Source of the DNA: Lachnospiraceae bacterium
GTDB taxonomy: Bacteria; Bacillota; Clostridia; Lachnospirales; Lachnospiraceae
Assembly (NCBI GenBank): GCA_017468395.1
Contig: JAFUIR010000013.1
Location: 1 to 64,000, forward strand
Length of the DNA: 64,000 nt
Direction: 5' to 3'
Numbering within the stretch: position 1 is the first letter of the stretch; each line of letters starts with the position of its first letter. The notes under the pieces are model-generated. The model was not told the origin of the DNA. It ran no database searches and saw only the letters and a list, made by a program, of their open reading frames with translations. Below are positions 9,378 through 63,128 of this stretch, piece after piece. A program made the translations under genes and the position numbers.

Positions 9378-9469
9378 GTTAATACCTTCTTTCTTATGTT
9401 TTAGAACGTCAAAAATGCTTTCTTACTGTACAGTATGATACCATACTTTTTATTGATTTGCACTAACTT

Positions 9470-44207: not shown

Positions 44208-44240
44208 AAAAACAGTGAGTCCTAAAACTCACTGTTTTTT
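44208..44240 (-). terminator. Terminator overlapping the end of the GGDEF-EAL gene
   Basis: AAAAACAGTGAGT and ACTCACTGTTTTT form a perfect stem with a 7-base loop. The 5' arm, on the reverse strand, encodes the last residues of the protein. Confidence 0.85.
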
Positions 44241-47179
44241 GAATCTTCTTTTTCCTGTTTCAACATATTTTCATATGTTTCAATGTCTACCGGTTTGGAA
44301 TAATAATATCCCTGTACATAATAACTGCCGATTTCCCGCAAGAACTGCACCTGTTCTTTGGTCTCAACACCTTCTACAATTACCTGCAACTGCATGTTTT
44401 TGGCAAGATCAATCAGAGTATGTAAAATAAATCGTCCCTTTTCTACATCTTCTCCGCCGTCAAGGAATTTAAGATCCATTTTAATAATGTCAAGGGGTAC
44501 TTCTTTCAGCATATTTAAAGATGAATATCCGCTTCCGAAGTCATCCATGGCCACTTTAAATCCGTCACTGCGCAGTTCCTTAATTCTCTTATAAATAATA
44601 TCTGTATCTTCCGCACAAATCGTCTCTGTGATTTCCAGTTCGATATCATCGGGCTTTAACTGATATTTGCCGATAAGTTCCGCCAGTTTATCCCTCAGTT
44701 CCTTACCATAAAAATGGGCACGGGATACATTGATGGAAATGGGCAGATTTTCATATCCTAACTTTTTCAATTTGGCTATTACACGGCAGGTTTCTTCCCA
44801 GACATAATAATCCAAACGCACGATAAAACCGTTCTTCTCGAATATGCCGATAAACAGCCCCGGCGGAATCATGCCCTTCTGGGGGTGTTTCCAGCGTACC
44901 AAAGCCTCGCCGCCGATAATTTTATCCCTGCTGATATCATACTTCGGCTGTACAAATACACAGAACTGCCTTGTTTCCAACGCTTTTTCCATGTCGTTTT
45001 CAATTTCGGTTTCCCGGACAATACGTTTGCGCTCTTCATCCGAATAAAATCTGATGTATTCCGACCTTTGACGGGAATTGTCATGGGCCGCCAGATTTGC
45101 CCTGTCACACATAATATTAACAGGCAGTTCTTTCTGGTCTTCTATCATGAACACACCATAAATCGCTTTAATATCAATTTCGTCCAAAAATGTTTTAAAA
45201 CGCTTCGGAAGGCTGATGTCTTCAAAATCTTTTTTGGCAAGACACATATAAAAATGGTCACCGTTAAAACGTGCCAATATGTATTTGCGTCCATAGACCA
45301 ACTCCTGCAATTCATCTGCCATATAACAAAGCAATTTATCGCCGGTGCTCATGCCATACAAATCATTTACCACTTTGAAATTGGAAATATCCATCATCAG
45401 AATGCACATTTCCTCCGTGGATTCATCAATCATTTTGCGTGCTTCCTCATAAAAACAGGCACGGTTGTAAACACCGGTTAATTCATCCTGTTTATTTTTT
45501 TTACGCAAAAGTTCATATTCCTTGCGTTCAAATTTAAGCGAAGTTATCCGGCGTAACAATACTGTATAAACCGTAACACTTATAATCAGGCACAACGCAG
45601 AAAAGATTATCCATCTTTGATAACGATATAAGAAATCTGTTATTCCCTGGTCATAAGGATTAGAAATCAGTTCCATGGACACCAGATTGCTCTTTTCTTC
45701 TTCTGAAATATAACTAATGGTTTTGTTTATAATATCAATCAATAGTTGATTTTCTGCACTACCGAAAAGACACATACCATTTGTATACACTTTGCCCGGA
45801 TATTCCACAAGATTATCTGCATATCTGGGCTTCTGCAACAGATATGTAATCATATATGCATCCTGAATGGCAACATCTGCATCACCTTTTATTACTGCCT
45901 CCAGACAATCCGTAGTACTGTTATAATACTTTATGGTACAATTGGGTACATCCCGTTCCAAAAGAGGGGGTAAATATCCCATTTCCCCGGTAATAGCAAA
46001 AACCCAATCATCCCGCCCTGTTTTCAGCACCGTATCCTTATGTTTTACATAGGACAACTGCGTTTCCAGCAAAATGGTACTGGTTGCTATTTCTGTACCC
46101 AAATCACTTTCTTCCAAGGCACTTTCCGCACGTAACATCAGATAATCGCCCTCTACGATATGCTGGGTCTGTTCTTCCATAGTCATAGGCGTTGTTACGA
46201 TTTCTATTTCAAATTCCAAACCGCTTTTTTCAGACAAAAGATTCAGGTAATCTACAAAGACACCATCCATTTCACCGTCTTCTATGTAACTTAAAGGCTT
46301 GGATCCCTGCATCAGTTTTACACTTACGGGCTCTGTTTTTTCAATATATTCAGCCTCTTGTCTTGTAAACATGGGACTGTCGGAAATAGATGCCATACCA
46401 TAATATTTTTCTGTCAGTTCCGCCTCCACAGACGGCTCCATCACTTTCAATCTCTGAAGCGCATAATCCAGTTCTTCCATCAACTGAGTATTCATTTTTC
46501 CGGTAATACAATAAATAGCCTTTGTACCAAAACGGTCTACAATTTTCACATTTTCATGACTATACAAACTTCCTACAGCCGCAATATCCACACTGCCATC
46601 CTGCAAAGCGTCCAACGCCATCTGCTCTGAATCGAAATATACTTCTTCTATTTCGATTCCCTCTTCGGCTGCATGGGAAACCATCTCCTTGGAATGAAGA
46701 CTTCCCGTCATCATCCCAACTCTTTTCCCATTCATAACTTCATGGTCCATATAATAAATGTCGCTATCATTCTTGGCATAAACAATCGTATATTCATATC
46801 CAAAAGGAACACTGGTATACAAATAATCTTTTTCCCGTTCCGGCGTGCGTTGCACCATGCAGAGCAAATCAATCTCGCCGCTCTTAGTCATAGACATACA
46901 ATTTTCCCATGTGTCATATACAAATTCATATTCCCAGCCTGTATATTCCCCAATCTTTTCCAGATACTCCACTCCGTATCCATAAAAATGTCTATCACTC
47001 TCCTGCACAAAATCAGCCTGCTCCATAAAACCGACTTTTATCTTCTTTTCTTTGGCATTTACCTGCATCCCGGTTAATATACCGGCTTTTGATAATACAC
47101 CGGCAAGTAATGCAAACAGCGCCACATAAATCCATAGTTTTTGATATTTAAATGCTTTCTTTTCTCTTTTGTGTTTCAT
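44222..47179 (-). CDS. Two-domain periplasmic-binding sensor with degenerate GGDEF and intact EAL (c-di-GMP phosphodiesterase)
   Basis: The 985-residue membrane protein has an N-terminal anchor (residues ~14-36). Two tandem SBP_bac_3-type solute-binding domains follow outside the cell (~46-270 and ~285-505), then a second membrane helix (QRWIIFSALCLIISVTVYTV). A GGDEF domain follows with a degenerate active site (RFNGDHFY in place of GGDEF), and last an EAL domain with GGEALVRWKHP, DDFGSGYSSLNML and EVPLDIIKMD. The EAL motifs are complete, so it probably degrades c-di-GMP, with the GGDEF acting as a GTP-binding regulator (inference). The ligands are probably amino acids or similar. Confidence 0.9.
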   Translation of the reverse strand: MKHKREKKAFKYQKLWIYVALFALLAGVLSKAGILTGMQVNAKEKKIKVGFMEQADFVQESDRHFYGYGVEYLEKIGEYTGWEYEFVYDTWENCMSMTKSGEIDLLCMVQRTPEREKDYLYTSVPFGYEYTIVYAKNDSDIYYMDHEVMNGKRVGMMTGSLHSKEMVSHAAEEGIEIEEVYFDSEQMALDALQDGSVDIAAVGSLYSHENVKIVDRFGTKAIYCITGKMNTQLMEELDYALQRLKVMEPSVEAELTEKYYGMASISDSPMFTRQEAEYIEKTEPVSVKLMQGSKPLSYIEDGEMDGVFVDYLNLLSEKSGLEFEIEIVTTPMTMEEQTQHIVEGDYLMLRAESALEESDLGTEIATSTILLETQLSYVKHKDTVLKTGRDDWVFAITGEMGYLPPLLERDVPNCTIKYYNSTTDCLEAVIKGDADVAIQDAYMITYLLQKPRYADNLVEYPGKVYTNGMCLFGSAENQLLIDIINKTISYISEEEKSNLVSMELISNPYDQGITDFLYRYQRWIIFSALCLIISVTVYTVLLRRITSLKFERKEYELLRKKNKQDELTGVYNRACFYEEARKMIDESTEEMCILMMDISNFKVVNDLYGMSTGDKLLCYMADELQELVYGRKYILARFNGDHFYMCLAKKDFEDISLPKRFKTFLDEIDIKAIYGVFMIEDQKELPVNIMCDRANLAAHDNSRQRSEYIRFYSDEERKRIVRETEIENDMEKALETRQFCVFVQPKYDISRDKIIGGEALVRWKHPQKGMIPPGLFIGIFEKNGFIVRLDYYVWEETCRVIAKLKKLGYENLPISINVSRAHFYGKELRDKLAELIGKYQLKPDDIELEITETICAEDTDIIYKRIKELRSDGFKVAMDDFGSGYSSLNMLKEVPLDIIKMDLKFLDGGEDVEKGRFILHTLIDLAKNMQLQVIVEGVETKEQVQFLREIGSYYVQGYYYSKPVDIETYENMLKQEKEDSKNSEF

Positions 47180-47247
47180 CAGACTACTCCCATCCTCACT
47201 ATAATTCTTATATAGTCTTAGTCATACTTTTCTACATTAACACGTTA

Positions 47248-47275
47248 ATTATATCATTAATTAAGTCAATTTCAA
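47248..47275 (-). promoter_or_regulatory. Probable promoter of the GGDEF-EAL gene
   Basis: TTGAAA (47270-47275) and TATAAT (47248-47253), spacer 16, about 70 bases before the start codon. The rest of 47180-47448 is AT-rich and shows no gene. Confidence 0.6.
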
Positions 47276-47388
47276 ATAATTTTTTGAAATTAAAGCAAAA
47301 AAGAAAGCAAAATTAATATAAATTGCGTTTTGGTGTATAATTATCGGGAAATTTTATCTCTAAATGACTTATAATTGAAACCGAACAA

Positions 47389-47422
47389 GGGCCAAACGGC
47401 ATTTCCTGCCATTCAGCCCTCT
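47389..47422 (-). terminator. Stem-loop after the ADP-ribosylglycohydrolase gene
   Basis: AGGGCTGAATGGCA and TGCCGTTTGGCCCT (reverse strand) form an imperfect stem with a 5-base loop. The downstream T-tract is weak. Confidence 0.45.
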
Positions 47423-47448
47423 CTTAATTTTCCCTCTCTATGTTTCTG

Positions 47449-48423
47449 TCAGGAGTTTTTAGCAAATCTTTCCTCCATCACTTCACACAAAGAAATAATT
47501 TCAGTTTCCTTAATAATCTGCTTTCTCCACTCTATCGGTACATTGTCATATCCATAGTAAAGGACTGCCAAACCACCTGCAATTGCTCCAATCGTATCGG
47601 TATCGCCGCCGAGATTTACTGCCCTAAGTAAGCCTTCTTCCAACGTATCCGTTGTAATCAGACTCCAGATGGCTGCTTCCAAACTATCTACCACATAACC
47701 GCTGCTTTTAATCTCATCTTCACTGCACTTTGCAAACTCATCCAATTGAAACAGTCTCGTGTAGCACGCCAGTTCCACATAATTACCAATATCTTCATGG
47801 TAAAAATCCACAGCATCATCTACGCCGCTTTGTAAACGTTCCGGCAGACTTGCGCATCCTTCAATGATATTTTTAACCATAAAGTAATAGATTCCGCAAG
47901 CCATTTTAGACCGCCGATGATTATGGGTAAGCGCTGAAACCTGATGTACACATTCCATGGCTTGTTTCAAATCCCATTCTTTATTGCAAACCTTTTCATA
48001 GGCATAAAGACAGGCCGGCATGATTCTCATAAGAGCGCCGTTTCCGTTTGCCCATTCTCCTGTCTTTCCACAGGTTTTGTAATCTTTTTCTCCTATATAT
48101 TTACAGATTGCCTCCACGCAGGTATTTCCCTGATCGAAGGCCTTACCTGCCGGAGTATACTTGCCAAAGCACATCCACTCAACAAACTTCCCCATAATAT
48201 CTGAGTAATTCACTTCTCCCTTTTCTCTGATACTATCGAGAGTTGCTAATGCCATACTACTGTCATCAGACCATGTTCCCGGAGGCATATTATAGGTTCC
48301 GTAGCCTTGTATTGTTTTCACCGGCTTATTGTTTAATTCAGCTCTATCAACAAACTGTACAGGCATTCCGAGCACATCGCCTACCACAACACCCATCATG
48401 CCGTTTACCCATATATTTTTCAT
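47449..48423 (-). CDS. ADP-ribosylglycohydrolase (DraG/ARH family)
   Basis: The 324-residue protein has the ARH metal-binding signatures: MPPGTWSDDSSMALATLDSI (first Asp/Ser cluster), GNGALMRIMPA, and GGDTDTIGAIAGGLAVLYYG (second Asp pair). It removes ADP-ribose from protein or small-molecule targets, releasing modified substrates (family knowledge). A GGAGG lies before the ATG. It is the last gene of a leftward run starting with the sigma-like gene; gaps are 13, 33 and 44 bases, so co-transcription is likely. That makes ADP-ribose removal a possible part of the neighbouring system. Confidence 0.9.
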   Translation of the reverse strand: MKNIWVNGMMGVVVGDVLGMPVQFVDRAELNNKPVKTIQGYGTYNMPPGTWSDDSSMALATLDSIREKGEVNYSDIMGKFVEWMCFGKYTPAGKAFDQGNTCVEAICKYIGEKDYKTCGKTGEWANGNGALMRIMPACLYAYEKVCNKEWDLKQAMECVHQVSALTHNHRRSKMACGIYYFMVKNIIEGCASLPERLQSGVDDAVDFYHEDIGNYVELACYTRLFQLDEFAKCSEDEIKSSGYVVDSLEAAIWSLITTDTLEEGLLRAVNLGGDTDTIGAIAGGLAVLYYGYDNVPIEWRKQIIKETEIISLCEVMEERFAKNS

Positions 48424-48467
48424 TTTCTATCCTCCATTTAAACGTAGAACACTCAAATACTTCGTGA

Positions 48468-48977
48468 CTAATTTCGCGGGTGGCTGACATGTACCTCTTT
48501 TACTACTCCCGGTAAGAATTGTTCTTCTTCAGAAAGCCAAGTAATTCCATAGGTATTCCGGAAAAATTCTTTTTTCAGGAAAATGTATTCACTTCTTGAC
48601 ATACTAAGGAAATCTTCTCCATGTTCTTCTAAAATTTTATGAAATTCATCGCACTTATCATAATAATCCTGTGATGTAAAATATCCGCCCGTTCTGTATT
48701 CCGGGAGTAAAAGAGCCTCTCTGTCAACCTTAGGAACAGATTCATATTTCCCTATAAGGTTTGACTCATAAGTCAGTAATAGATTCCTTTTTCTTTCTAT
48801 TTCTTTTTTCAACACTTCCATTTCCTGTCTTAATTTAAGAGAACCGAGAACTATCTTGCTTCCTCCGAATCCCGGAATCATTTCAGGCTTACACAAAAGT
48901 TTCTTTTCTTCCAGTTCCTTTTCCAATTCTTCAATTTCCTGTCTTAATTCTTCCTTGATTTTTTCTCTATCAGCCAT
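48468..48977 (-). CDS. Coiled-coil protein, function unknown
   Basis: The 169-residue protein has an N-terminal charged coiled coil (KEELRQEIEELEKELEEKKL), a Pro/Gly break (PEMIPGFGGSKIVLG) and a second coiled coil to about residue 70. The C-terminal ~95 residues are globular-looking (EYRTGGYFTSQDYYDKCDEF). No family is recognised. It lies between the anti-sigma-like gene and the ADP-ribosylglycohydrolase gene with short gaps. Confidence 0.65.
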   Translation of the reverse strand: MADREKIKEELRQEIEELEKELEEKKLLCKPEMIPGFGGSKIVLGSLKLRQEMEVLKKEIERKRNLLLTYESNLIGKYESVPKVDREALLLPEYRTGGYFTSQDYYDKCDEFHKILEEHGEDFLSMSRSEYIFLKKEFFRNTYGITWLSEEEQFLPGVVKEVHVSHPRN

Positions 48978-49010
48978 AATAACCTCCGCATTATCATCCT
49001 TTGAAATTTT

Positions 49011-49649
49011 TTACGGTGTTTCTAACACGTCCCCTAATTCTATGTCTTCTTTCTCATCTACATATATTTCATAACATTCTTCCAACTGCGCGATTTCAAA
49101 GGTTGCTTGGGCAAGCCCCTTTTTTTCGTCCCACTTCGCCGTTGCCACCATAATCTTAGCATCCTTTTCCTTTACGGGTACAAGAATCACAGTCACATCT
49201 GCCTGTTTTTTACACCGCACCGTCACAGATGCTTTTCCTTCTTCATAGTGCACCGTCACCGGCTTTTGCTCTTCGCTGTCACTACTGCGCACGGCCGCCT
49301 GTACTTTTATAAAGTCAGCCTTTGCCACTGATATCTGTTTCAAAAGTCCCTGTTCCAAACGTCCGGCTATTTCTGCCATACGCCGGTCTTTAGCCATCAT
49401 TCCCAGACGCAAAGCTACGATTTTACGGCGTATCTGTGTTTCCTGCCTCACAAGATTCAGCGCCAAAGCCATGTCTGCCTCCTTCGTCATTGTAGACAAA
49501 AGAAGCATTTTATCCAGCCTTTCCCTGCACAATTCACAGGTATCCAAATGAGCCATAAGAGGCTCACAAAACATCATATACTCTTCCGAAAAATCCGTAT
49601 CTTCTGCGTATCGCTCTAACTCTTCGTAAGTCAAATGTCCTTTTTCCAT
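49011..49649 (-). CDS. Soluble ZAS-type anti-sigma-factor-like protein
   Basis: This 212-residue protein has an N-terminal Hx3Cx2C motif, AHLDTCELC (His34, Cys38, Cys41), the zinc anti-sigma (ZAS/zf-HC2) signature. No membrane segment follows, so it would be cytoplasmic. Residues ~60-115 are helical and charged. The C-terminal ~90 residues are beta-rich (VTVHYEEGKASVTVRCKK) and not recognised. It begins 13 bases after the sigma-like gene, the classic sigma/anti-sigma order. Binding to that protein is inferred from position and motif. Confidence 0.7.
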   Translation of the reverse strand: MEKGHLTYEELERYAEDTDFSEEYMMFCEPLMAHLDTCELCRERLDKMLLLSTMTKEADMALALNLVRQETQIRRKIVALRLGMMAKDRRMAEIAGRLEQGLLKQISVAKADFIKVQAAVRSSDSEEQKPVTVHYEEGKASVTVRCKKQADVTVILVPVKEKDAKIMVATAKWDEKKGLAQATFEIAQLEECYEIYVDEKEDIELGDVLETP

Positions 49650-49662
49650 CCGTCATATCCTT

Positions 49663-50490
49663 TCACTGGAAGCAATATTCTGCTTCTGCCTCTATTAACT
49701 GACGCTTAATTTTCTCCCGAAGGCGCAGGCTCCAGTTTTCAAAATCTTTGACCGTAAAGTGCTCCCCAAAAATAAGTTCACCGATATAAATATTGTCCTG
49801 CAACTCATCCATGGCGTCCAAAAAGTCATTACTCCACCTAAGCGGCACCTGCGGCATCCACTCCCGCATTTCCTTCAAAAAACGCTCTGCTCCCTGCCAT
49901 ACCCGGTCCTGTTTTAAGTTCTCATAAGCCCATTTGGGCGATGTCAGTTCCTTAGTATACGGATGATACTTCTGGAATAAAATCATGGTAAAACCGCAGC
50001 TTACTGTCCGATAAGGCTTCTGTTTCCAATCCATTAAAATTGTAATGTACTTTTTTACCAGTTCAATCATCTCCAGCCGTTCCTCATATTCAATCACCAG
50101 ACGCTCGGGAGAACGGTAAAGCAAGCTGCATTCGGATGATTCCGGTTCCTGCTCCAAATCTCCCTCCAAATCAAGCAACATACGGCTACGCTTTTTTTTC
50201 CAATTCCACACCTTATTTTTAACAATCTGTGCACAATAAGTTGCAAACATCGCCTGTTCCTTTTGAAAACTATGCAGTACATTTGTTGCCACATAGGCCA
50301 GCACTTCATTTGCAATATCTTCGATTTCCGTCTCATCCACGTAGCGGCTTTCATTCATGAATTTCCATGTCATATACTTCAGATAACGAAACAGTTTTTC
50401 ATAAAACACATCCATATTTCTATCCGGTTCCATGCAAAATGCATCATATTCCGCTTCAACATCTGCGCTAAGTGATGTATAATGTTCCAT
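49663..50490 (-). CDS. Sigma-70 region-2-like protein (ECF-like)
   Basis: In the 275-residue protein, residues ~35-110 resemble sigma region 2: FRYLKYMTWKFMNESRYVDE, then EDIANEVLAYVATNVLHSFQ and FATYCAQIVKNKVWNWKKKR, mirroring the D-x2-Q/N-E-x-F and R-N...K-R pattern of ECF factors. The C-terminal ~165 residues show no clear region 4 helix-turn-helix, which is unusual. It heads the run with the ZAS protein, coiled-coil protein and ADP-ribosylglycohydrolase, and is divergent from the CHAT protease. Transcription factor activity is inference. AGGAGGGAC precedes the ATG. Confidence 0.6.
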   Translation of the reverse strand: MEHYTSLSADVEAEYDAFCMEPDRNMDVFYEKLFRYLKYMTWKFMNESRYVDETEIEDIANEVLAYVATNVLHSFQKEQAMFATYCAQIVKNKVWNWKKKRSRMLLDLEGDLEQEPESSECSLLYRSPERLVIEYEERLEMIELVKKYITILMDWKQKPYRTVSCGFTMILFQKYHPYTKELTSPKWAYENLKQDRVWQGAERFLKEMREWMPQVPLRWSNDFLDAMDELQDNIYIGELIFGEHFTVKDFENWSLRLREKIKRQLIEAEAEYCFQ

Positions 50491-50530
50491 AGAAGTCCCT
50501 CCTAAAATCCACTACTTTTCCAATATGGTT

Positions 50531-50536
50531 ATTATA
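50531..50536 (-). promoter_or_regulatory. Extended -10 promoter element of the sigma-like gene run
   Basis: TGCTATAAT on the reverse strand is a full extended -10. No good -35 is seen at 17 bases, which an extended -10 tolerates. The start would lie within the short divergent gap between the sigma-like gene and the CHAT gene. Confidence 0.5.
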
Positions 50537-50588
50537 GCAAATTTTCATAGAGACTTCCACCAATAAATACAACGGAGATATGTTTTTC

Positions 50589-53000
50589 ATGTCAATTTCA
50601 AGCGAACTTCAACTGGCAAAAACAGCATACGAAACCGGGCAGTTGTCACAGGCTTATTCCCGCAACAGTTCCTTACTTGCTTCCCATGTAATGCAGGCTG
50701 ATTTTGGTGCCTGTACAAGGGACAGACTTTTGGAATACTTAGATGTGGTGACTCTCCAACAATCTTTATTGGTGCTTTTTAACCGGCCGGCGGATTATCT
50801 GGCACTGGAGCCTTATGTAACTGAATTGGTTTCATTGATTTTTGCACAAGATGCCGACTTTTACTATGCCATCCATGCCTTCGATGCCTGCGAAGCAATG
50901 ACCACTCACGCCTTTCTTACCGAAGCGTACGATTATAAAAACAAAGCAGTTTCCCTCCTAAAAAAACATTATGGCACATGCCCGTACCTGTCCTTTATGG
51001 AGGCAATTTGTAATGCCCAGATTGCGTTTTATATGGAGGACTATTACACAGCAATTGACGAAGCGACCACCGCCGATAGTCTATGGTATGTATCGGAAAA
51101 TGAGCAGGTTTCCATGCCCCATCCCGCTAATGCTGAAGCATCTTTTCACACCATCAAGCGGCTTGGAATCAATAATTTACTGCTCCTTTGCAATTCTTAT
51201 GGAAAAATCAATAACCCCAAGTCCGCCATCGGACTGCTTACGGAGTTATTAGCCCAAAACGTATTCGACTATTACCAGAAAATCTCTGCCGAAATTACCC
51301 TTGCAGAATTGTATGTAATCGCAGGAGAAACAGAACTTGCCCGTCCCCTTTATGAGACTTACAAAACCAGTAATTTTTCCAATTATCCGGGGCTGACCGC
51401 AGCCTTAAACAGTCTTTCCTATATTTTTGAAACGTCTCCCGATGCCTTTACACCGGAAGTTCCAAGCGTACCATGCTGTTACAGCCGGAATATGTTTACC
51501 GTTTCCCGCTATAATTATGGTCTTGGGCTCGTTTCCGCCGGCAAATATCAGGAAGCACTGACTCAATTTCAGGCTGTGGGTGAAACAGGCTATTCCATGC
51601 AACTTGCCCTGCTTGCTTCTTTCGACCGTTCATCCGACATCGAGAACTTACGCACCGACGTGAATGCTTACTTTTATCGGCAGACCGGTCAGATTATCAG
51701 GCACTATGAAGAATCCCTTGCCTACAACCACCTTGCCAGACTGCAATATCACTTTAACCTTACACTGGGCGCTTATTGTCATCCGAAGTTGTCTTCTGCC
51801 CTGGCATATGAGTTTCTGTTAAATACTAAATACATCGGTCTTGAGACCTCCTATCTTCAAAAAAAACAGCAGCCACATTCCCTTGTGCAGGCCCCCTTTG
51901 TTATGCAGCACCTGCCGGAAGACACCTTGCTTTTAGAATATACCCATGTACGCACTATAGACACCGTCTCCTACGGTGTATTTGTCGTGTCCCAAAAAGA
52001 GATTACTTATATTCCGCTGGGTGAAATTGGTGCCATCGATGATGCGTTACAGGAATGGCTCCGCCTCCTTTTGGAAATGCCTCATGCCACCGGAACGAAA
52101 GCCCGGCTTCTTTTAGCCGACTATCAGACAGTCAGTCAGCGCTTACGCAGACTGCTTTATCTGCCCCTTCGAGCGCATCTTGCAGCGTATCATACGCTTC
52201 TTATCGCACCGGCCGGGGAACTGGTAAACTTTCCCTTTTCCCAGCTGTCCCTCTCCGGGGACAAGACACTTGGCGATACCTATGCCATCCGTTACCTGAA
52301 TACCGGAAAGGAATTGCTTGGCACAGCCCCCTCGTCCTATCATTTTTGTGCTGATACTGCAAAAGCCCTGGTCGTTGGAAATCCCAGTGTTTCCTGTTTT
52401 GTAAATCTGCCTTTTGCAGAGTCAGAGGCGGATATGGTATCTTACTTCCTACACACCACCGCCTGCAAAAACGAGCATGCCACCATTTCTTATGTACAGA
52501 ATGCACTGAATGAATCCCCGGATATCATACATATCGCTGCCCATGGCATCTATCAGGCACCTGTTACAAAAAATGAGGCAGTAGACTGGGATATCCTCTA
52601 TTACGCCATGCAACACAGTGGTATCGTCCTGGCAGAGGATACCCTGCTTTCTTCTGCTACGCTTGCCACACTGGATTTAAGCCACACGAAACTAGCCGTT
52701 CTTTCCTGTTGTCACTTAGGCCAGTCTGCCTACCTTGGCACAGAAGGGGCTTACGGACTGCGCCGTGCCCTCCGTCTCGCAGGTTGTCATGCACTGATTA
52801 TCAGTCTGTGGCAAGTGGATGACGCTGCTTCCTATTTGTGGATGAAGGCATTCTATGAAGCCTTTACACTTAGCGGTACTTCCATTGAAGATGCGTTTTT
52901 CATCGCACAAGATACCGTAAAATCATACGAACAAAACGGATGCAAGCCTTATGCCAGCCCTTATTACTGGGCAGGCTTTATTCTGGTGTCTCCCCATTGA
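50589..53000 (+). CDS. TPR-like CHAT-domain caspase-family protease
   Basis: The 803-residue protein starts MSISSELQLAKTAYETGQ. GGAG lies 11 bases upstream; a start nine bases earlier is possible. Residues ~1-420 are alpha-helical TPR-like repeats (LNNLLLL, AELYVIAGETELARPLYETY, GLVSAGKYQEALTQFQAV). The C-terminal ~370 residues form a CHAT domain. The catalytic dyad is intact: His652 in IIHIAAHGIYQ and Cys708 in LAVLSCCHLGQSAYLGTEGA. SLWQVDDAASYLWMKAFYEA and SPYYWAGFILVS complete the signature. CHAT proteases cleave specific proteins once activated (family knowledge). It is divergent from the sigma/anti-sigma-like pair, so the anti-sigma is a candidate substrate (inference). Confidence 0.9.
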   Translation: MSISSELQLAKTAYETGQLSQAYSRNSSLLASHVMQADFGACTRDRLLEYLDVVTLQQSLLVLFNRPADYLALEPYVTELVSLIFAQDADFYYAIHAFDACEAMTTHAFLTEAYDYKNKAVSLLKKHYGTCPYLSFMEAICNAQIAFYMEDYYTAIDEATTADSLWYVSENEQVSMPHPANAEASFHTIKRLGINNLLLLCNSYGKINNPKSAIGLLTELLAQNVFDYYQKISAEITLAELYVIAGETELARPLYETYKTSNFSNYPGLTAALNSLSYIFETSPDAFTPEVPSVPCCYSRNMFTVSRYNYGLGLVSAGKYQEALTQFQAVGETGYSMQLALLASFDRSSDIENLRTDVNAYFYRQTGQIIRHYEESLAYNHLARLQYHFNLTLGAYCHPKLSSALAYEFLLNTKYIGLETSYLQKKQQPHSLVQAPFVMQHLPEDTLLLEYTHVRTIDTVSYGVFVVSQKEITYIPLGEIGAIDDALQEWLRLLLEMPHATGTKARLLLADYQTVSQRLRRLLYLPLRAHLAAYHTLLIAPAGELVNFPFSQLSLSGDKTLGDTYAIRYLNTGKELLGTAPSSYHFCADTAKALVVGNPSVSCFVNLPFAESEADMVSYFLHTTACKNEHATISYVQNALNESPDIIHIAAHGIYQAPVTKNEAVDWDILYYAMQHSGIVLAEDTLLSSATLATLDLSHTKLAVLSCCHLGQSAYLGTEGAYGLRRALRLAGCHALIISLWQVDDAASYLWMKAFYEAFTLSGTSIEDAFFIAQDTVKSYEQNGCKPYASPYYWAGFILVSPH

Positions 53001-53601
53001 TTTTTTCTAACCCTATTACTTCTCTAATCAGTTCCTCCGTTAAGTTTAGCTCGTTGAGTTCTCCGAGATGTATATGGTTCAGCTCATGGTAGATTGAAAA
53101 CAAATATTTCCCATCTTCGGTATTTATATGGAATGTAAGTTTAGGAAAATCTTCGACATATTTCTCTATCATTTCTTTCATAACACCCAAAGTTTCGCTA
53201 AATTTACATTTTCTGCAAAAATCGGGACCGTAGTAAAACTCTGATGGCTCCGTATACCCCTCAACAACTACATTCAGATTTATTAATTCCTCTAATGCCG
53301 GTGGCGTTCTATCTTTAATAGATGAGTCATTCAGAAAACATCGCTCAAAAACATCTAAAACCTGAGGTTCTAACTCTTCATACCCATCTTGGATTTTATA
53401 TTTTGGCTTAACTCCGTGTAGTTCAAACATGAGTTTTTTGTTTTCATCATAAGCTAATATGTGTGCTGTTCTCAATTTCCCTTTGTAATGCTCGCAAAAC
53501 AGTTCGATTTTAGAAAAGCATTCCTCAAACGGAACCTCAATCTTTAGGTTTATAATAATTTCCCTTATATCCGGGAAAAAGTACAGTGAAACATTGTTCA
53601 T
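52978..53601 (-). CDS. Unknown 207-residue protein with a CxxC pair
   Basis: No family is recognised. It begins MNNVSLYFFPDIREIIINLK and contains FYYGPDFCRKCKFSETLGVM (a CxxC) and two helical halves. It looks cytoplasmic, with no signal or membrane segment. Its 3' end overlaps the CHAT gene by 23 bases, tail to tail. AAGGAG precedes the ATG. It has its own upstream gap, so its link to the neighbouring operons is only by position. Confidence 0.6.
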   Translation of the reverse strand: MNNVSLYFFPDIREIIINLKIEVPFEECFSKIELFCEHYKGKLRTAHILAYDENKKLMFELHGVKPKYKIQDGYEELEPQVLDVFERCFLNDSSIKDRTPPALEELINLNVVVEGYTEPSEFYYGPDFCRKCKFSETLGVMKEMIEKYVEDFPKLTFHINTEDGKYLFSIYHELNHIHLGELNELNLTEELIREVIGLEKINGETPE

Positions 53602-53689
53602 AAAATCTCGTCTCCTTTCTGTTTTCCGGTTTCATATACTTTATTTCCCTAATGTCTGAAACCCTCATTTTTTTATGAAAAAAAACAAA

Positions 53690-53750
53690 TAAAAAGAAAC
53701 TGTACACTTACAGGGTAGCCTGATGCTCCCCGCAAGGTACGGTTCCTTTC
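53690..53750 (-). terminator. Probable terminator of the Hsp70-AAA operon
   Basis: Reverse strand GGAACCGTAC pairs imperfectly with GTACAGTTTC around a GC-rich loop that contains a further small stem, and is followed by TTTTTATTTG. It lies 30-90 bases after the last gene of the operon. Confidence 0.55.
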
Positions 53751-53781
53751 ATTCTCTTTTTGCTTCACTGCTTCCGGCTGC

Positions 53782-55617
53782 TCAAAAATCCCCTTTTAAC
53801 ATATCCTCCCCGGCCTTATGCAATTCGGCAATGCTTATCTTATTATAATTCTCATTAATATATTTTTCCCACTTCTCAGCCAGTTGCCTGCCCCCTCTTG
53901 ACTCCTTAAGTTTTTCTTTAATTCTACTCGTTCGACGAAGCCAACGTATTCTTTTAAGATACCATTCATCGGCCATAATATCGGATAATTTTATGGACTC
54001 CGGAAGTTTTTGGGATAGTCTTTCAAAGAATCGGAAATAGTAATCTATTCTTTCATAGGTGTCCCCTATTTCTGACTCATTTCTTCCCTCTGCTCTCCGC
54101 AGCAACAACTCCATATAAATGTTTTTAAAAATAAGTTCTATATACCGCTGTACCTCTTCCGGTGTACACCCCTCTGTACCTGTTTCTATCATCTGTAAAA
54201 ATTTCTCACATTTTTCCTGATAGATTCCTTCTACCGGAGAGCAGACAAGCAACGCGAGATGTTCTCTATTATTTAGCCCTCCCCACCTCGTCTTACAAAT
54301 AAAATCATAATTCCATAAAGACAATTCGTCATGCCTTCGAATTACTTTATAAAACATTTTATTCTCTTCGTAGTATCTTCGGTCTGTTTCCACCCACTCT
54401 TTCCAATTTTCAATCAAACGTTCAAACTCTGTGTTCAATGCAATGGAATCATATTGGGGCATCTGACCAATTGCATCTTCCAAATATTGATAAATGCGAC
54501 TATAAAGGTTTCTCAAACCTTCCACTTTCATCACGTTAGGCTGATTCAAAATCCATTCATCCGCCCACTTCTCCCACTTATCGATACGCGCATTAATAGT
54601 CTCTACATTGTCATCGCCCAGATATTTCCCGGGTCTCAAAGAATCGTAGGATAAAGTGTCATATTCCACTTTGTCCCTGATTTTTTTCCATTCCAAGGCC
54701 TCTGTTTTCCAATCCTCCAAATGCCGGTACAATTCCTGCTTTCCAAGTCTTAAAATCCACTGTCGGAAACTAAGTACACCTTCTTTTTCTTCATAAAGTG
54801 TCTTTATAAATGCGTCCCACTCCTTTAGAGACCAGTTTGCACATTCCCTTTTACACAAGTCACCAAACTCTTCCAAAGAAGTACATACTTTATCCTTGTA
54901 TAAAAATCCCTGATGCAGTCTGTCCGCAACTTTGTGATACGCCTTTACATAATCCTCTGTGGTCCCTTTATTTGGCTCTGCAGTATCCGAAAGCAATGCA
55001 AGAAATTCGTCTTCCGCCCCCGCGTATCCATAAAGAGAAAACAGTTTTTCTCTTAACATCAGACATGCATTACGTATATTCACCTCCCGTCTATCATAGG
55101 AACGCTCCCAATCGTCCTCAAGATTCTTACCCATAACCATTGTCAAATATTTTTGTTCCCGTGTGTCAAGTTCTCTTCTGAAAAAATCCTTTAATTTTTC
55201 ACTATTCCAAAGATTTAACACTGCCCACTCTCCGCCAATCGCGTAGTACCAGCCGGCATTTTCCCAATAATCAAAGAAACAAGGGATTTCTTTTAAAGCA
55301 GGTTCAAAATAATGAATTGCCTGTGCAAACAAGATATCTGCTGTCAAATCATTTTCCGGATCCCACATGGCATTATAAATTTCTTCAAAATGCCTTTTGT
55401 TTTCATCCTGTATGGCTGCATCCGCATCCACATAGGTATGCCAGAAATCATTCCAATCTCCGCACTTAAAGGTGGTTATGGCGTCATCCCAGTTATTAAT
55501 AAATTCCTGCACAAGACTTCTGCTGTCAGAACAAATTTCGCCTTTGAACCTTACCGGAGTGATGTAGCAATATGTGGGCTTCTCCACGCTTTTCTCCAAT
55601 ATATATTTATAACTCAT
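53782..55617 (-). CDS. Large protein of unknown function, last gene of the Hsp70-AAA operon
   Basis: The 611-residue protein starts MSYKYILEKSVEKPTYCYIT at 55617, overlapping the stop of the upstream gene by four bases (ATGA). It is rich in Trp, Tyr and charged residues and mostly helical (KWEKWADEWILNQPNVMKVE; YRHLEDWKTEALEWKKIRDK). Repeated W-x2-W/E-W patterns suggest helical repeats. No signal, membrane helix or known catalytic motif is seen. The tight coupling to the TPR protein suggests one complex. Nothing in the sequence identifies an activity. Confidence 0.6.
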   Translation of the reverse strand: MSYKYILEKSVEKPTYCYITPVRFKGEICSDSRSLVQEFINNWDDAITTFKCGDWNDFWHTYVDADAAIQDENKRHFEEIYNAMWDPENDLTADILFAQAIHYFEPALKEIPCFFDYWENAGWYYAIGGEWAVLNLWNSEKLKDFFRRELDTREQKYLTMVMGKNLEDDWERSYDRREVNIRNACLMLREKLFSLYGYAGAEDEFLALLSDTAEPNKGTTEDYVKAYHKVADRLHQGFLYKDKVCTSLEEFGDLCKRECANWSLKEWDAFIKTLYEEKEGVLSFRQWILRLGKQELYRHLEDWKTEALEWKKIRDKVEYDTLSYDSLRPGKYLGDDNVETINARIDKWEKWADEWILNQPNVMKVEGLRNLYSRIYQYLEDAIGQMPQYDSIALNTEFERLIENWKEWVETDRRYYEENKMFYKVIRRHDELSLWNYDFICKTRWGGLNNREHLALLVCSPVEGIYQEKCEKFLQMIETGTEGCTPEEVQRYIELIFKNIYMELLLRRAEGRNESEIGDTYERIDYYFRFFERLSQKLPESIKLSDIMADEWYLKRIRWLRRTSRIKEKLKESRGGRQLAEKWEKYINENYNKISIAELHKAGEDMLKGDF

Positions 55618-57518
55618 AGCCGTCTTCTCCACCTTTCTGCCGCATCCGTATCTTTTAACTGTCCCAGCTGTCCGTGCTCTAAAATATCGGCCATACGACT
55701 AATGGCTTCACGTTCCCCTGCTTCCGCCGCCGCTTTATAGCAACTAAATATTTCTTTTGTGGTCGGAAAATCATTCTGCATAACAGCCCTTAAAAACTCA
55801 TCCTGTTCTGCTACCTGCGCAAAGCGAAGTGCCGCATAGGTATTCCCTTTCCTTGCCAGTTCACGCAAGCGTTTAAAGCCGGCCGGCTTTCCCCTAACAT
55901 TACCGGAATTACACTCATTATAACTTTCCTCTGCCTCCTCCCATTGAACCTGATGCTTCGTAACCCATGCATTGCAGCGATTATATTCTTCCCTGCATTG
56001 CTCACGCACCTTGGGATCTGTTGCATAGGAACTGCCTTCACTGTAATAGCTTATCGCCTTCTCATACACATTTTTTTCTTTGTACAGATTACCCAGAAAC
56101 AAGTATACATCAGTGATACAACTTCCATCCTGGAACTCGTACTCTAATACATTTCTATAAAAAACGATTTGCTCTTCGCGGTTGAGTTCTCTCAAAAGTC
56201 GTCCTTTATATTTCAGCCATTTATCGCGCTTATACCTGTCCTCTGTCCATTTACCTATTTGTGCCGCCTTATTATAGTATGCATAGGCAATGGAGGGATT
56301 ACAAACCATATTTTTGCCAAACTCATAACGCCAGCCGTACCACTCAAAAAGTTCTTCACGCACTGCCGGTATAACATCCTCACGATAGAGCATGCCCTCC
56401 AAAAAAACCTCTAAATCTTTCTGTTCCTGCGGCCTTTGCTCCATGTAATTGCTAAGCAGAAGTTTCTCAAGTATTACGGTAGCCTCTTCATCCCTATTTG
56501 CTACGTTACATAATAATTTTTGTGCCTCATCGTATCTGCCCGCTCTAAGATAAAGCTGTCCCTCCAGGCATTGAGCACACCATGTATATGTTCCCTCGTT
56601 TTCTATCAGTTCCCGTAGCGGCACAGTTATGGATTCCTTTAACAGGTCATATCCCAGCTCTGTTCCAAGCCTGTAATAATAGAACACGACCTTCCTGTCA
56701 TTTCCATTTTGCATACTTATGGCAGAACGAAGTTTCAGATATTTTTCGAATAATTCAAATGGTTCTTTCTTCTCTTCAAATCTATGCATATGATTAGAGT
56801 TAAAATCCAGTTTGGCAAATGACCATGCTTTATCTAATATAGCCTCTGCACAATCGCCCTCTATCGCAATATTTCTGTATGTCTCATTCATTTCATAAGG
56901 AAGCAGAATTCCTTCAGCATTCTTCTCCGTCACTTTCCATGCCGCACTCACACTTCCGCTTCTTATAAGAGAATCATATATGCGTGCAATTCTGTCTTTG
57001 TTCTTATGGTCTGCTTCTTCAAGTTCTGCAAGTAAGCACAGATATTCTTTGTCACTTTCCGCCTTTTTCGCCACTTCGCGATAAATTTCCTGCTTCGTCT
57101 GCACATCTGTTGCATCCTTGTATTTTCTCAGTTGTTCCGCTTTATAGCTCTCATGGGATGTCTCTGACGATTTTCTTTCCTCCGTTGCTTCATCGGGTTT
57201 TTCCATATCTGCCAGTTCTGTACTCTCTGCATCATCCTCTTCATCCGCACCGGGCAGCATCAATCCGCTGTTCTCTATTTCCCTGTCACGGAGCATTTTC
57301 TCAATCTGTTCTACCAGCGCTCTTTGTTCGTTCAGCTTTTTATACTCATCGGAATTCGGCGAGTATGCACGCTCCCTTTTACGCACATCTCTCTTAAATC
57401 TGCGAAACAACTCGTCCAATTCCTCTTCCGACATGGTCATTAGATTTTCCGCTTCCTCATAACCGGATTCATTTAAAAACAATTTTAATTGTTCCAGTGC
57501 TTTTTCTAATTCTGTCAT
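55614..57518 (-). CDS. TPR/Sel1-like repeat protein of the Hsp70-AAA operon
   Basis: The 634-residue protein has an N-terminal charged helical region (MTELEKALEQLKLFLNESGY) and an acidic linker (LPGADEEDDAESTELADMEK, ~95-115). Helical repeats follow, including YLRAGRYDEAQKLLCNVANR, YLFLGNLYKEKNVYEKAISY and the Sel1-like end CYKAAAEAGEREAISRMADI followed by LEHGQLGQ. Such repeats mediate protein contacts. It begins 9 bases after the AAA gene, with its ribosome site partly overlapping that gene's stop codon, and overlaps the next gene by four bases. It is likely an adaptor for the AAA+/Hsp70 pair (inference). Confidence 0.7.
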   Translation of the reverse strand: MTELEKALEQLKLFLNESGYEEAENLMTMSEEELDELFRRFKRDVRKRERAYSPNSDEYKKLNEQRALVEQIEKMLRDREIENSGLMLPGADEEDDAESTELADMEKPDEATEERKSSETSHESYKAEQLRKYKDATDVQTKQEIYREVAKKAESDKEYLCLLAELEEADHKNKDRIARIYDSLIRSGSVSAAWKVTEKNAEGILLPYEMNETYRNIAIEGDCAEAILDKAWSFAKLDFNSNHMHRFEEKKEPFELFEKYLKLRSAISMQNGNDRKVVFYYYRLGTELGYDLLKESITVPLRELIENEGTYTWCAQCLEGQLYLRAGRYDEAQKLLCNVANRDEEATVILEKLLLSNYMEQRPQEQKDLEVFLEGMLYREDVIPAVREELFEWYGWRYEFGKNMVCNPSIAYAYYNKAAQIGKWTEDRYKRDKWLKYKGRLLRELNREEQIVFYRNVLEYEFQDGSCITDVYLFLGNLYKEKNVYEKAISYYSEGSSYATDPKVREQCREEYNRCNAWVTKHQVQWEEAEESYNECNSGNVRGKPAGFKRLRELARKGNTYAALRFAQVAEQDEFLRAVMQNDFPTTKEIFSCYKAAAEAGEREAISRMADILEHGQLGQLKDTDAAERWRRRL

Positions 57519-57527
57519 AGTTTTCTC

Positions 57528-60500
57528 CTAGTTTTCAAAATCTTCCCTTCTTATGGTGCTGATTTCTTCATCCGGTAACTGCTGCAGTTGTGTCTCGGAT
57601 AAAAGTATCTCGTCATTTGCTGCAAGTCTTGCGTTCATGCGTTTTACTACCGCTTCAAAACAGTTACGCACACCTCTGGCATTACCAAAATCCGGGTAAG
57701 CCTTTTCCTGCTCTCTTACGATATAATCTGCCACGCAGTCCTCTAAGTCCGTATCCAGCTTATAACCCTCAAGTTCTGCTTTTTTATAAAAAATACGAAC
57801 CATCTCATCTAAGCTGTAATCTTCCAGGGTAAGTTTCGTATTTAAACGGCTTCGCAGACCCTGGTTATGCTTTAAGAGTTTTTCCATTTCTTCCTCATAT
57901 CCTGCCATAATTACCATAAGGTCATCACGATTATTCTCAATCGGTGCAAGCAGCGTATTCAGCGCATCCTTACCAAATTCATCATGGTCACCGTTTACCA
58001 GATTATAAGCCTCATCAATAAACATAATACCGCCCTTGGCACGCTCTACTTCCTTCGTCACTTTTGCCCCGGTCTGTCCCATGTATCCTGCCACCAGTGA
58101 TTCTCTTCGGATTTCTACAAAAACGTCCTCGCTTTTAATCAGTCCGGCTTTTCCGTAAATCTTGCCAATTAAACGCGCAACCGTAGTCTTACCGGTTCCG
58201 GCATTGCCCATCAAAATCATATGCAAACTTCCCGGAGAGTACGCAACACCGGCTCTTCTGGCACGCTCCTGTGCAATTTTACTGGACTTAATTTCGTCCA
58301 TAATATGCTTTTTCACACCCTCCATACCGGTTAGGTTATTTAGTTCATCCAAATAGTCATCTAAGGTTTTTTCGTTCTCTGTCTCATGACCGATATATTC
58401 TTCCACATCTATTTTGCGGATGGTTCTTCTGTCCACGCTCTGCTCGATTTTCTGATTCAGCACACGCACCGCCAGTTTTTGAAGCATCCCCTCTAACATG
58501 TTCCGGATTTCTCCGGCATTTCCAAAGTTGCTACGGCTCATCTTGCTCTTAATCAGTCGCTTTACCGCTGCTTCTGCATCCGTATGTAAATAGTAACGGC
58601 GTTTTGCCAGCATGGAGTTAAAAATCTCCATCAACTCATCTTCGTTATAATCTTCAAAATGCAACTGGTGCGGGAACCGTCTCGCCATACCCTCATTCAC
58701 AGCAAGAAGCTGGCGCATGGGCTCCTCGTAGCCTGCCATAATCACCATCAGACGGTCGCGGTAATTCTCCGCTCTGGTAAGCAGCGTATTAAATGCTTCC
58801 TTACCAAAGTCATCATTATCTCCGGTCACCAGGTTATACGCTTCATCAATAAAGAGCACACCACCCATGGCCTTTTTCACGACCTCATCTACTTTTAAAG
58901 CCGTCTGACCGGAATATCCGGCCACCAGACCATCTCTGGTCACTTCCACAAAAATATCACCTCTCGGCAAAATACCGATTTGTCCGTAAATCTTGCCAAG
59001 CAAACGGGCTACAGTTGTCTTACCGGTTCCCGGAGGGCCAAGCAATAGCGTATTTAAGGAAACAGCCTCTTCGTCCTCATTCCCTTCTTTCCGGTTCTTT
59101 TCCCGGGCTTCAAACAGCGCAATTTTCTCGTTCACTTCATCCTTTACGGTAGCAAGGCCGATTAAGGAATCTAATTGTTCTCTTAATTCCTCTAAGGGCT
59201 CCTCCTGCTCATCCTGCATCACAAAATCCCGATCCTCATAGCAACGCGCACCGCCTTCTTTTGCAACACGATAAGCCAGATTCTTTTTTGCTTCGATGAT
59301 AACCTGCTGAATGGTATGACCGTTTGCAAAGTCGCCCAATACAGACTTCTTCCGAAGTTCCTGATAAAACTGCTCTTTTCCTTCATCCGAAATCTCATAT
59401 TCGTCTTTTTCTATCATCTGCAAACCAATCTGGTGCAACTGGCTGCCGGAATATACCGGAATTTTCAGATAAGTTACATAGTTTTTAATCTTGGAATTAT
59501 TGGAAATCAGGCTATCCATTGCTTCCATTTCACCCAAAAACAGGTAAAAATGCTCCTGCCCCAGACACGCATCCTCCAATAACTGCTCCAATAACAGCCA
59601 AATCTGATTTTTCTCTTCTCCGCCTTTTTCCGACTGTGCCGGTGCGCTCCAGAGATATTCCGCATTGTTAATGATTATGACAGGAGGGGCATCCTCCAAA
59701 ACCTCCTCCATACTCTCCATCAGGGAAACAGCGCTAATTTCCAGAGGTTCTCTTTTCTTTGAAAGTCCTGCCTCGTACAAAAGCTCTGTGATAATATACG
59801 CAAGTTTTGTCTTACCGCTGCCCACCTGTCCGGAAATCACAAAATTAAACGGTACCGCAATCCGGTCAATCTGATTCCCGTTCACCTGTAAGTGCTGATA
59901 GAGTGCACCGATTTCCTCTTTGATTTCGTCCACGCCTATCATGTCCTCAAACAACTTCTCTACCGCTTTCGGAACCTCTCGTTTCACTCTCTTTATTGTA
60001 GGCACAAAAACCTTTGCTTTTTTTCCTGCATCCCCGCCGGATTGAAGCATTTCTTCGGCTTTTCTCTTATTTGCTTCGTCCGAGCTTCTTGCCAGAATCT
60101 GTTTCAAATAATAGGTTCTGTTCAAATATTCTGCCGCCTCAAAATAAATCGCATCCTCATAGGAAATCATATTATCCAGCATTTTTTGCGCCAGTTCTTC
60201 TAATCTGCTGCGCTCTGCTCCGCTTTGCTTTTCATAAAAAAAGCGCGCAATCGCCTCTGCTTCTCTTGATTTGCCAATCGACACCGTAAGCAGTTTCTCC
60301 CATTGCTCTGCCGATGCCCCTGTCTTTAGATACAATTCGCCCAAACGCTCTACCTGACGACGCTGTGGTCGAAGTTCCACCAGACGTTCCCACCATACAA
60401 CAGCCTCACTTGCTCTGCAAAGTTTCCGATAACTTTCTGCCACCTTTATGACTACCTCTTCCTCTGCTATCTCGCTTGGCTTGACATCTGCATATAGTGC

Positions 60501-60545
60501 AGCAATCTTTTCGTAATTTCCTTCTTTGTAATATTCATGAATCAT
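57528..60545 (-). CDS. Triple AAA+ ATPase of the CbbX/SpoVK (CbxX/CfqX) type with TPR-like N-terminus
   Basis: The 1005-residue protein starts at 60545 (MIHEYYKEGNYEKIAALYAD), with AAAGGTG upstream. Residues ~1-170 are TPR-like. Three AAA+ modules follow. Module 1 (~200-430) keeps a Walker A, SGQVGSGKT, but its Walker B reads VIIINNAEYL, with Asn in place of the Asp/Glu pair, so it is likely inactive. Modules 2 (~455-720) and 3 (~735-1000) are near-duplicates: GPPGTGKTTVARLLGKIYGQ / GNAGTGKTTVARLIGKIYGK, and GGVLFIDEAYNLV / GGIMFIDEAYNLV. Both have sensor and Arg-finger regions. CbbX and EccA family members remodel proteins, threading or releasing partners. It lies between Hsp70 and the TPR protein. 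Confidence 0.92.
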   Translation of the reverse strand: MIHEYYKEGNYEKIAALYADVKPSEIAEEEVVIKVAESYRKLCRASEAVVWWERLVELRPQRRQVERLGELYLKTGASAEQWEKLLTVSIGKSREAEAIARFFYEKQSGAERSRLEELAQKMLDNMISYEDAIYFEAAEYLNRTYYLKQILARSSDEANKRKAEEMLQSGGDAGKKAKVFVPTIKRVKREVPKAVEKLFEDMIGVDEIKEEIGALYQHLQVNGNQIDRIAVPFNFVISGQVGSGKTKLAYIITELLYEAGLSKKREPLEISAVSLMESMEEVLEDAPPVIIINNAEYLWSAPAQSEKGGEEKNQIWLLLEQLLEDACLGQEHFYLFLGEMEAMDSLISNNSKIKNYVTYLKIPVYSGSQLHQIGLQMIEKDEYEISDEGKEQFYQELRKKSVLGDFANGHTIQQVIIEAKKNLAYRVAKEGGARCYEDRDFVMQDEQEEPLEELREQLDSLIGLATVKDEVNEKIALFEAREKNRKEGNEDEEAVSLNTLLLGPPGTGKTTVARLLGKIYGQIGILPRGDIFVEVTRDGLVAGYSGQTALKVDEVVKKAMGGVLFIDEAYNLVTGDNDDFGKEAFNTLLTRAENYRDRLMVIMAGYEEPMRQLLAVNEGMARRFPHQLHFEDYNEDELMEIFNSMLAKRRYYLHTDAEAAVKRLIKSKMSRSNFGNAGEIRNMLEGMLQKLAVRVLNQKIEQSVDRRTIRKIDVEEYIGHETENEKTLDDYLDELNNLTGMEGVKKHIMDEIKSSKIAQERARRAGVAYSPGSLHMILMGNAGTGKTTVARLIGKIYGKAGLIKSEDVFVEIRRESLVAGYMGQTGAKVTKEVERAKGGIMFIDEAYNLVNGDHDEFGKDALNTLLAPIENNRDDLMVIMAGYEEEMEKLLKHNQGLRSRLNTKLTLEDYSLDEMVRIFYKKAELEGYKLDTDLEDCVADYIVREQEKAYPDFGNARGVRNCFEAVVKRMNARLAANDEILLSETQLQQLPDEEISTIRREDFEN

Positions 60546-60586
60546 TATGTAACCACACCTTTCCAATGCTTGTAGACTTTACCCTG

Positions 60587-62149: not shown

Positions 62150-62162
62150 TTCCAATACCTTT

Positions 62163-62975: not shown

Positions 62976-63036
62976 ATCTTTTACCTCGCCTTTACGTCAT
63001 TTTCATGAAACTACACAACCTCATTAATTACATAAA

Positions 63037-63065
63037 ATTATATCAAATCCACACCTTAATTTCAA
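63037..63065 (-). promoter_or_regulatory. Strong sigma-A promoter of the Hsp70-AAA operon
   Basis: TTGAAA (63060-63065) and TATAAT (63037-63042), spacer 17, reverse strand. A small dyad CGTG-TTT-CACG (63066-63076) abuts the -35 and may be an operator. Transcription begins about 55 bases before the first gene. Confidence 0.8.
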
Positions 63066-63128
63066 CGTGTTTCACGGTCTCTAACTAACCGTTTCTACAG
63101 TCTTTGCTTAGGTTCTCTGTATCAAATT

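What the first reader, a model, noticed from the sequence alone, without database searches (positions are those of the whole stretch)
47449..53000. CHAT protease divergent from a sigma-like / ZAS anti-sigma-like / ADP-ribosylglycohydrolase operon
A TPR-like CHAT protease with intact His and Cys faces a sigma-region-2-like gene followed by a Hx3Cx2C anti-sigma-like gene, a coiled-coil gene and a DraG-type hydrolase. In type III-E CRISPR systems a TPR-CHAT protease releases a sigma factor by cutting its inhibitor (established there). The same logic could operate here without CRISPR: CHAT cuts the ZAS protein and frees the sigma-like protein. The ADP-ribosylglycohydrolase could set or clear the trigger.
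Basis: partly seen in the sequence, partly recalled or inferred. Interest (0 to 1): 0.85.

Follow-up and report, generated by a model that had tools for sequence, protein, structure and literature searches.

The report
Caspase-like protease with sigma/anti-sigma pair
A bacterium carries a caspase-like protease beside a sigma-factor-like protein and its likely inhibitor, a gene set that recurs in distant bacteria and looks like a protease-triggered gene switch of the kind known from one CRISPR system, but without CRISPR.

The parts
50580..53000 (+). TPR-CHAT protease, 806 aa; His655 (codon from 52542) and Cys711 (codon from 52710)
49663..50490 (-). sigma-region-2-like protein, 275 aa, with an unassigned helical C-terminal part shared with L024, L010 and L015
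49011..49649 (-). ZAS anti-sigma-like protein, 212 aa: H34-C38-C41, linker with A119-V-R121-S, C-terminal beta-rich domain
   Evidence: alignment of 9; found by a profile of the other eight at E 4.1e-8; profile matches RsiW (0.012), DdvA (0.14) and ChrR (0.31); coordinates
49284..49295 (-). codons of the linker motif A119-V120-R121-S122 (R121 codon 49289-49287): candidate CHAT cleavage site
   Evidence: one [AG][TV]R[GSA] match in each of 8 CHAT-linked ZAS-like proteins, none in L010, which has no CHAT in the 18 kb held
50491..50579 (.). 89-base divergent intergenic region between the sigma-like and CHAT genes
   Evidence: promoter-like sites over 47200-53900 not above chance, 17 found against 15.4 expected
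48468..48977 (-). coiled-coil protein, 169 aa; same gene run; no counterpart found
   Evidence: no BLAST match in 17 comparison loci, a weak test for such a protein
47449..48423 (-). ADP-ribosylglycohydrolase (DraG/Tri1-like), 324 aa; same gene run; no counterpart found
   Evidence: PF03747 E 7e-70; no BLAST match in 17 comparison loci

Best explanation
A three-protein, cytosolic, protease-triggered switch. The ZAS domain of the 212-aa protein holds the sigma-like protein inactive. The TPR part of the CHAT protein senses a signal, which is unknown, and turns on the His655/Cys711 caspase-like site. CHAT then cuts the ZAS protein between the zinc finger and the beta domain, most likely after the conserved arginine (R121). 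This frees the sigma-like protein, perhaps after further degradation of the stump, to act on RNA polymerase. Shown by calls: the gene set, the recurrent linkage, the folds of CHAT and of the sigma region-2 part, the zinc-finger motif and the linker motif. Inferred: binding, cutting, the site of cutting, the trigger and the output.
Against: No binding or cleavage data. Region 4 of sigma is not detectable in the window protein and the C-terminal half of its model is low confidence, so it may not start transcription by itself. In G569 the gene in the sigma position (L031, 375 aa) shows no relation to the sigma family: leave-one-out E 52, 106 of 200 shuffles as high, and profile-profile probability 0.2%; its zinc-finger spacing is H-C-x2-C. 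G998 has CHAT without a sigma. Three of the five sigma-linked CHATs are one genus. In L024 and L010 kinship to the window's sigma-like protein rests on the C-terminal part, and no sigma profile hits their region 2. The linker motif was found after looking at the same sequences. The pair exists without CHAT in the stretch held (G021/L010), and the sigma-like gene without CHAT in G105 and G396. No cyanobacterial CHAT locus has a sigma. In type III-E itself it is unclear how the cut releases the sigma (PMC10028731, passage).
Confidence: 0.5

Rival explanations
1. The sigma and ZAS pair is the sensor and the CHAT protease is its output: stress frees the sigma-like protein, which switches on the divergent CHAT gene, and CHAT then cuts other cellular proteins, for example in a suicide or defence response.
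For: The two genes face away from each other over 89 bases in the window; ECF sigmas commonly control their own neighbourhood (general knowledge); the Saprospiraceae locus L051 has the same divergent layout.
Against: In G365 and the five sigma-linked loci found through CHAT, CHAT is on the same strand as the pair, next to it, so a shared transcript is likely; DdvA, titled an anti-sigma factor, contains a CHAT-like part.
Confidence: 0.24
2. CHAT is a non-proteolytic sensor or scaffold: it binds the ZAS protein and changes its grip on the sigma-like protein without cutting, as the TPR-CHAT-like part of DdvA might do.
For: DdvA, titled a transmembrane anti-sigma factor, carries a CHAT-like part.
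Against: His and Cys are present in all 9 Bacillota CHATs compared and invariant in 31; the conserved arginine linker fits cutting.
Confidence: 0.14
3. The sigma-like protein is no sigma factor any more but an adaptor with a sigma-2 fold, and what is released by cutting is something other than a transcription factor.
For: No region 4 found in the window protein or in L125 by Pfam; the window's C-terminal part is instead shared with L024, L010 and L015.
Against: In L126, L127, L128 and L129 the same position holds a protein that matches the full ECF profile, and Pfam finds both regions in L129.
Confidence: 0.09
4. Chance neighbours.
For: The sigma-like gene is rare: 7 of 397 genomes of the family, own included and two of them weak, and 1 of 344 of the order, the own one.
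Against: Recurrent linkage in several gene orders and phyla.
Confidence: 0.03

Closest known systems
Type III-E CRISPR CASP module (Csx29 TPR-CHAT, Csx30, CASP-sigma)
   Different: No RAMP gene in the held genome (0 of 1, 92.7% complete), no CRISPR-like array at 40-64 kb; inhibitor is a ZAS-like protein; window sigma lacks a detectable region 4; NF041236 score far under its cut-off
Myxococcus xanthus DdvS/DdvA (ECF sigma and anti-sigma; PDB 8rot, 8rw5, 8rlz)
   Same: Anti-sigma factor with a TPR-CHAT-like part, a weak ZAS profile match in its 90-aa fragment 8rlz (0.14), and a cognate ECF sigma
   Different: One transmembrane protein; here separate genes, and no hydrophobic stretch in the two ZAS-like proteins measured (L125, L128). 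Whether DdvA's CHAT part is catalytic was not examined
ECF54-type sigma factors with CHAT-domain neighbours (review PMC8999054, passages)
   Same: ECF sigma with CHAT and 'carboxypeptidase' domain proteins in its context; the ZAS-like proteins L126, L128 and L129 carry a CarboxypepD_reg domain
   Different: The review speaks of control without an anti-sigma; here a zinc-finger protein is present. Group membership could not be tested
CalpL/CalpT/CalpS (type III CRISPR protease releasing a sigma)
   Same: Protease cuts an inhibitor to release a sigma-like factor (recalled; the CalpL paper PMC11417357 seen in search listings only)
   Different: Protease of another family, triggered by cyclic oligoadenylate (recalled)
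RsiW/SigW and ChrR/SigE zinc-finger anti-sigma pairs
   Same: ZAS profile matches (0.012 and 0.31); sigma-2 fold of the partner
   Different: Released by site-1/site-2 proteolysis or by oxidants (recalled), not by a CHAT protease

Membership tests
CHAT protease family (PF12770) | CHAT domain above curated cut-off with His and Cys | tested here: met
   156.8 bits against 24; H655 and C711
Type III-E CASP system | RAMP-type effector (Cas7-11/gRAMP) in the genome | tested here: not met
   PF03787 0 of 1 genome, 92.7% complete
Type III-E CASP system | CRISPR array next to the genes | tested here: not met
   three two-copy repeat families at window 40000-64000, none array-like
Type III-E CASP system | sigma of the NF041236 family | tested here: not met
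   21.5 bits against a cut-off of 100; second best family after TIGR02937
Type III-E CASP system | TPR-CHAT of Csx29 fold | tested here: met
ECF sigma factors | region 2 fold | tested here: met
   the fold model was made with ECF rows in its alignment
ECF sigma factors | region 4 | tested here: not met
   profile and profile-profile matches stop at region 2; a strongly diverged region 4 in the low-confidence C-terminal half is not excluded
ZAS-type anti-sigma factors | N-terminal zinc-binding anti-sigma domain with Hx3Cx2C | tested here: met
   H34, C38, C41; found by a profile of 8 relatives; that family's profile matches RsiW, DdvA and ChrR only weakly, 0.012 to 0.31, and the window protein alone has no zf-HC2 hit
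ZAS-type anti-sigma factors | binds and inhibits its sigma | not testable with these tools
   needs a binding assay
ECF54 group | sequence in the ECF54 subtree | not tested
   no ECF54 profile at hand; the classification paper is not held

The most novel reading that the evidence does not exclude
CHAT caspase, anti-sigma and sigma form an old, CRISPR-independent signalling switch found in several phyla, cytosolic in Bacillota and membrane-linked in Bacteroidota and Acidobacteriota. Type III-E CRISPR borrowed it as a ready-made output. CHAT cuts the ZAS protein after a conserved linker arginine. In one Bacillota branch the sigma has lost region 4 and gained a new C-terminal domain.
Probability: 0.36. 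Interest if true: 0.85.

Novelty: new variant of a known kind. Interest (0 to 1): 0.64.

Why it matters
If true, some caspase-like proteases in bacteria would be transcription switches rather than killers, and the CRISPR Csx29/Csx30/CASP-sigma module would be one branch of a wider family. It would give a defined substrate class and a candidate cut site for CHAT proteases, few of which have a known substrate (general knowledge).

Tried and rejected
Trigger role of the ADP-ribosylglycohydrolase: no BLAST counterpart at 1e-3 in 17 comparison loci. The window's ZAS protein also had no BLAST hit in that call, so the test is fair for the well-conserved enzyme but weak for the coiled-coil gene; gene calls in the GC-rich loci were poor. 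A second sigma-2-only match in the own genome (G000:C25) proved unrelated.

Region 4 in the window protein: an early profile-profile match over the whole length was circular, because Bacillota rows were in both alignments. With a clean ECF alignment the match covers region 2 only, E 1.5e-4, probability 51%.

G569 (L031): I first took its 375-aa gene for a sigma by eye and by position, and put it into a seed profile, so its score was circular. Left out of the profile it scores E 52, 106 of 200 shuffles as high, and profile-profile gives 0.2%. It is therefore not counted as a sigma.

Spread on viral contigs: three scans gave no confirmed relative. On plasmids: no match for the window's sigma-like protein, none for the ZAS-like protein of L129, 38 records for the window's CHAT, of which I opened four; one, Aureibacter tunicatorum pAT7, has sigma-hypothetical-CHAT in a row. 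The CHAT of L125 matched 313 plasmid records, none opened from that list.

Other CHAT hits. The CHAT-based searches outside the own genome gave 17 genomes: 5, 2 and 10; searches added none. Seven are full-length with context and are the n of '5 of 7'. Dropped before the count: G420 and G815 (fragments); G088, G102, G171, G212 and G274 (weak, different CHATs; no sigma at 1e-3 in the stretches held, best 0.0037 in L013); G725, G808 and G1067 (weak, only 2.5-3.6 kb held, no sigma hit). G365 is left out because the sigma found it.

Other phyla: 442 stretches matched, 372 were relatives, the best 80 were kept and gave 79 loci. A sigma lies within 3 genes of a CHAT in 12 of 79; per gene of 120 aa or more, 13 of 296 inside against 5 of 351 outside, Fisher p 0.02. 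L077 and L079 are near-copies. A quick tree of 87 CHAT domains (L079 left out) needs 10 changes of the linkage label, at least 7 on well-supported branches, against a shuffled mean of 17.5, 0 of 500 as low; L031 was labelled linked in it, and the window's row has a long branch and no supported place.

Structure search: families not in the lists are not excluded. Foldseek 'pdb' alone was not run.

Literature: ten searches. Between them they brought the CRISPR CHAT papers and the review PMC8999054; CHAT with zf-HC2 gave 0 papers. In these listings I saw no description of the CHAT, zinc-finger anti-sigma and sigma set outside CRISPR, but the lists were capped, subscription journals are not held, and the DdvA structure paper and the ECF classification paper were not seen.

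Full report

The ZAS-like protein. H34, C38 and C41 form Hx3Cx2C. In an alignment of nine the only invariant residues are the start Met, the two Cys, R121 and D174. Each of the nine is found by a profile of the others (for L126, L127 and L128 without their genus), E 5.9e-9 to 0.0067, 0 of 200 shuffles as high; the window's at 4.1e-8 over residues 3-202. The family profile's N-terminal PDB matches are RsiW (0.012), DdvA (0.14) and ChrR (0.31); zf-HC2 matches 2 of 9 members. The C-terminal part is a prealbumin-like beta domain: CarboxypepD_reg in 4 of 9 members, best 7.3e-12. R121 sits between the two. The pattern [AG][TV]R[GSA] occurs once in each of the 8 CHAT-linked proteins and not in L010, which has no CHAT in the 18 kb held; 6 of 6 clade representatives have it, and shuffles give a mean of 0.52, 0 of 20000 reaching 6. 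In L126, L128 and L129 its start lies 23 or 24 residues before the Pfam beta domain. I wrote the pattern after seeing these sequences, so this is a lead, not a test.

Linkage in Bacillota. CHAT-based searches in the family (299 genomes), the order (246) and the phylum (398) gave 17 genomes other than the own one. Seven hold a full-length TPR-CHAT with context. Five of these (G780, G870 and G1073, one genus; G806; G863) have a sigma upstream on the same strand, with midpoints 2.8-4.3 kb from the CHAT match, and a Hx3-4Cx2C gene between. G569 has a ZAS-like gene with H-C-x2-C spacing, a hydrolase and a 375-aa gene in the sigma position that I could not relate to sigma. G998 has none. G365, found through the sigma profile, has CHAT-sigma-ZAS. 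Loci dropped before the count are listed in Tried and rejected.

Other phyla. Of 79 loci from named genomes, a sigma lies within 3 genes of CHAT in 12, all Bacteroidota or Acidobacteriota by title; per gene 13 of 296 inside against 5 of 351 outside, p 0.02. In 7 of the 12 CHAT lies two genes downstream of a sigma on the same strand, and the gene between, anti-sigma-like by eye in most, has a hydrophobic stretch. L051 has the window's divergent layout. No cyanobacterial locus has a sigma at 1e-3. A cultured example is plasmid pAT7 of Aureibacter tunicatorum: sigma, hypothetical, CHAT. On a quick tree the linkage label is clustered but needs at least 7 changes, so it was gained or lost repeatedly.

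Mechanism and prior art. In type III-E, Csx30 inhibits CASP-sigma, and the authors propose that cutting by Csx29 relieves this; they say it is unclear how the cut releases the sigma and point to further degradation (PMC10028731, passages). The window has no RAMP gene in its genome and no array nearby. A review notes CHAT neighbours of ECF54 sigmas and suggests control by proteolysis without an anti-sigma (PMC8999054, passages). DdvA, titled a transmembrane anti-sigma factor, contains a TPR-CHAT-like part, and DdvS is active when DdvA is inactivated (PMC4374960, passages). The most likely reading is therefore a CRISPR-free protease switch: CHAT cuts the ZAS linker and frees the sigma-like protein. 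Binding, cutting, trigger and output are inferred. That CHAT and the pair belong to one module I hold at about 0.8; that CHAT cuts the ZAS protein at about 0.5; that the cut is at R121 at about 0.3.

What does not belong. The ADP-ribosylglycohydrolase has no BLAST counterpart in the other loci; for the coiled-coil gene that test is weak. The neighbouring genes (DnaK-like, three-fold AAA, TPR, VirD4-like) are partly shared with L024 (DnaK-like) and L010 (VirD4-like, 41% identity over 461 aa); whether they belong to the switch is open.

Noticed in passing
window 52978-63998, running on to G000:C9:65977 (L034): A minus-strand gene run beside CHAT: two unassigned proteins, a TPR protein, a triple-AAA (CbbX-like, my reading) protein, a DnaK-like protein, and a VirD4/TraG-like ATPase (PF02534 4.4e-36). 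A VirD4-like gene lies beside the sigma-ZAS pair in L010 and DnaK-like genes lie beside the triad in L024.
   Followed up: partly
L010 (G021:C2:12000-30000), 8131-9725: A sigma-like and ZAS-like pair without CHAT in the stretch held, near a weak Card1-like nuclease match, a VirD4-like ATPase, a weak STAND-like NTPase match and a TIR-Sel1 protein.
   Followed up: partly
L031 4523-5650: A 375-aa protein in the sigma position of the G569 CHAT locus that matches no sigma profile; it may be a very diverged sigma or something else.
   Followed up: partly
L015 9689-12071 and L023 8975-11366: The sigma-like gene without CHAT, next to a secreted protein that looks like a transglutaminase (read by eye).
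   Followed up: no
NZ_AP025312.1 1197-5399 (L135, L136): Aureibacter tunicatorum plasmid pAT7 carries sigma-70, hypothetical and CHAT genes in a row, a cultured organism for bench work.
   Followed up: partly
L024 10765-14180: Downstream of the G365 triad lie a large protein with List_Bact repeats and a weak JAB-like gene.
   Followed up: no
window 44222-47179 -: Large protein that reads like two substrate-binding domains plus GGDEF and EAL domains (by eye, not searched).
   Followed up: no
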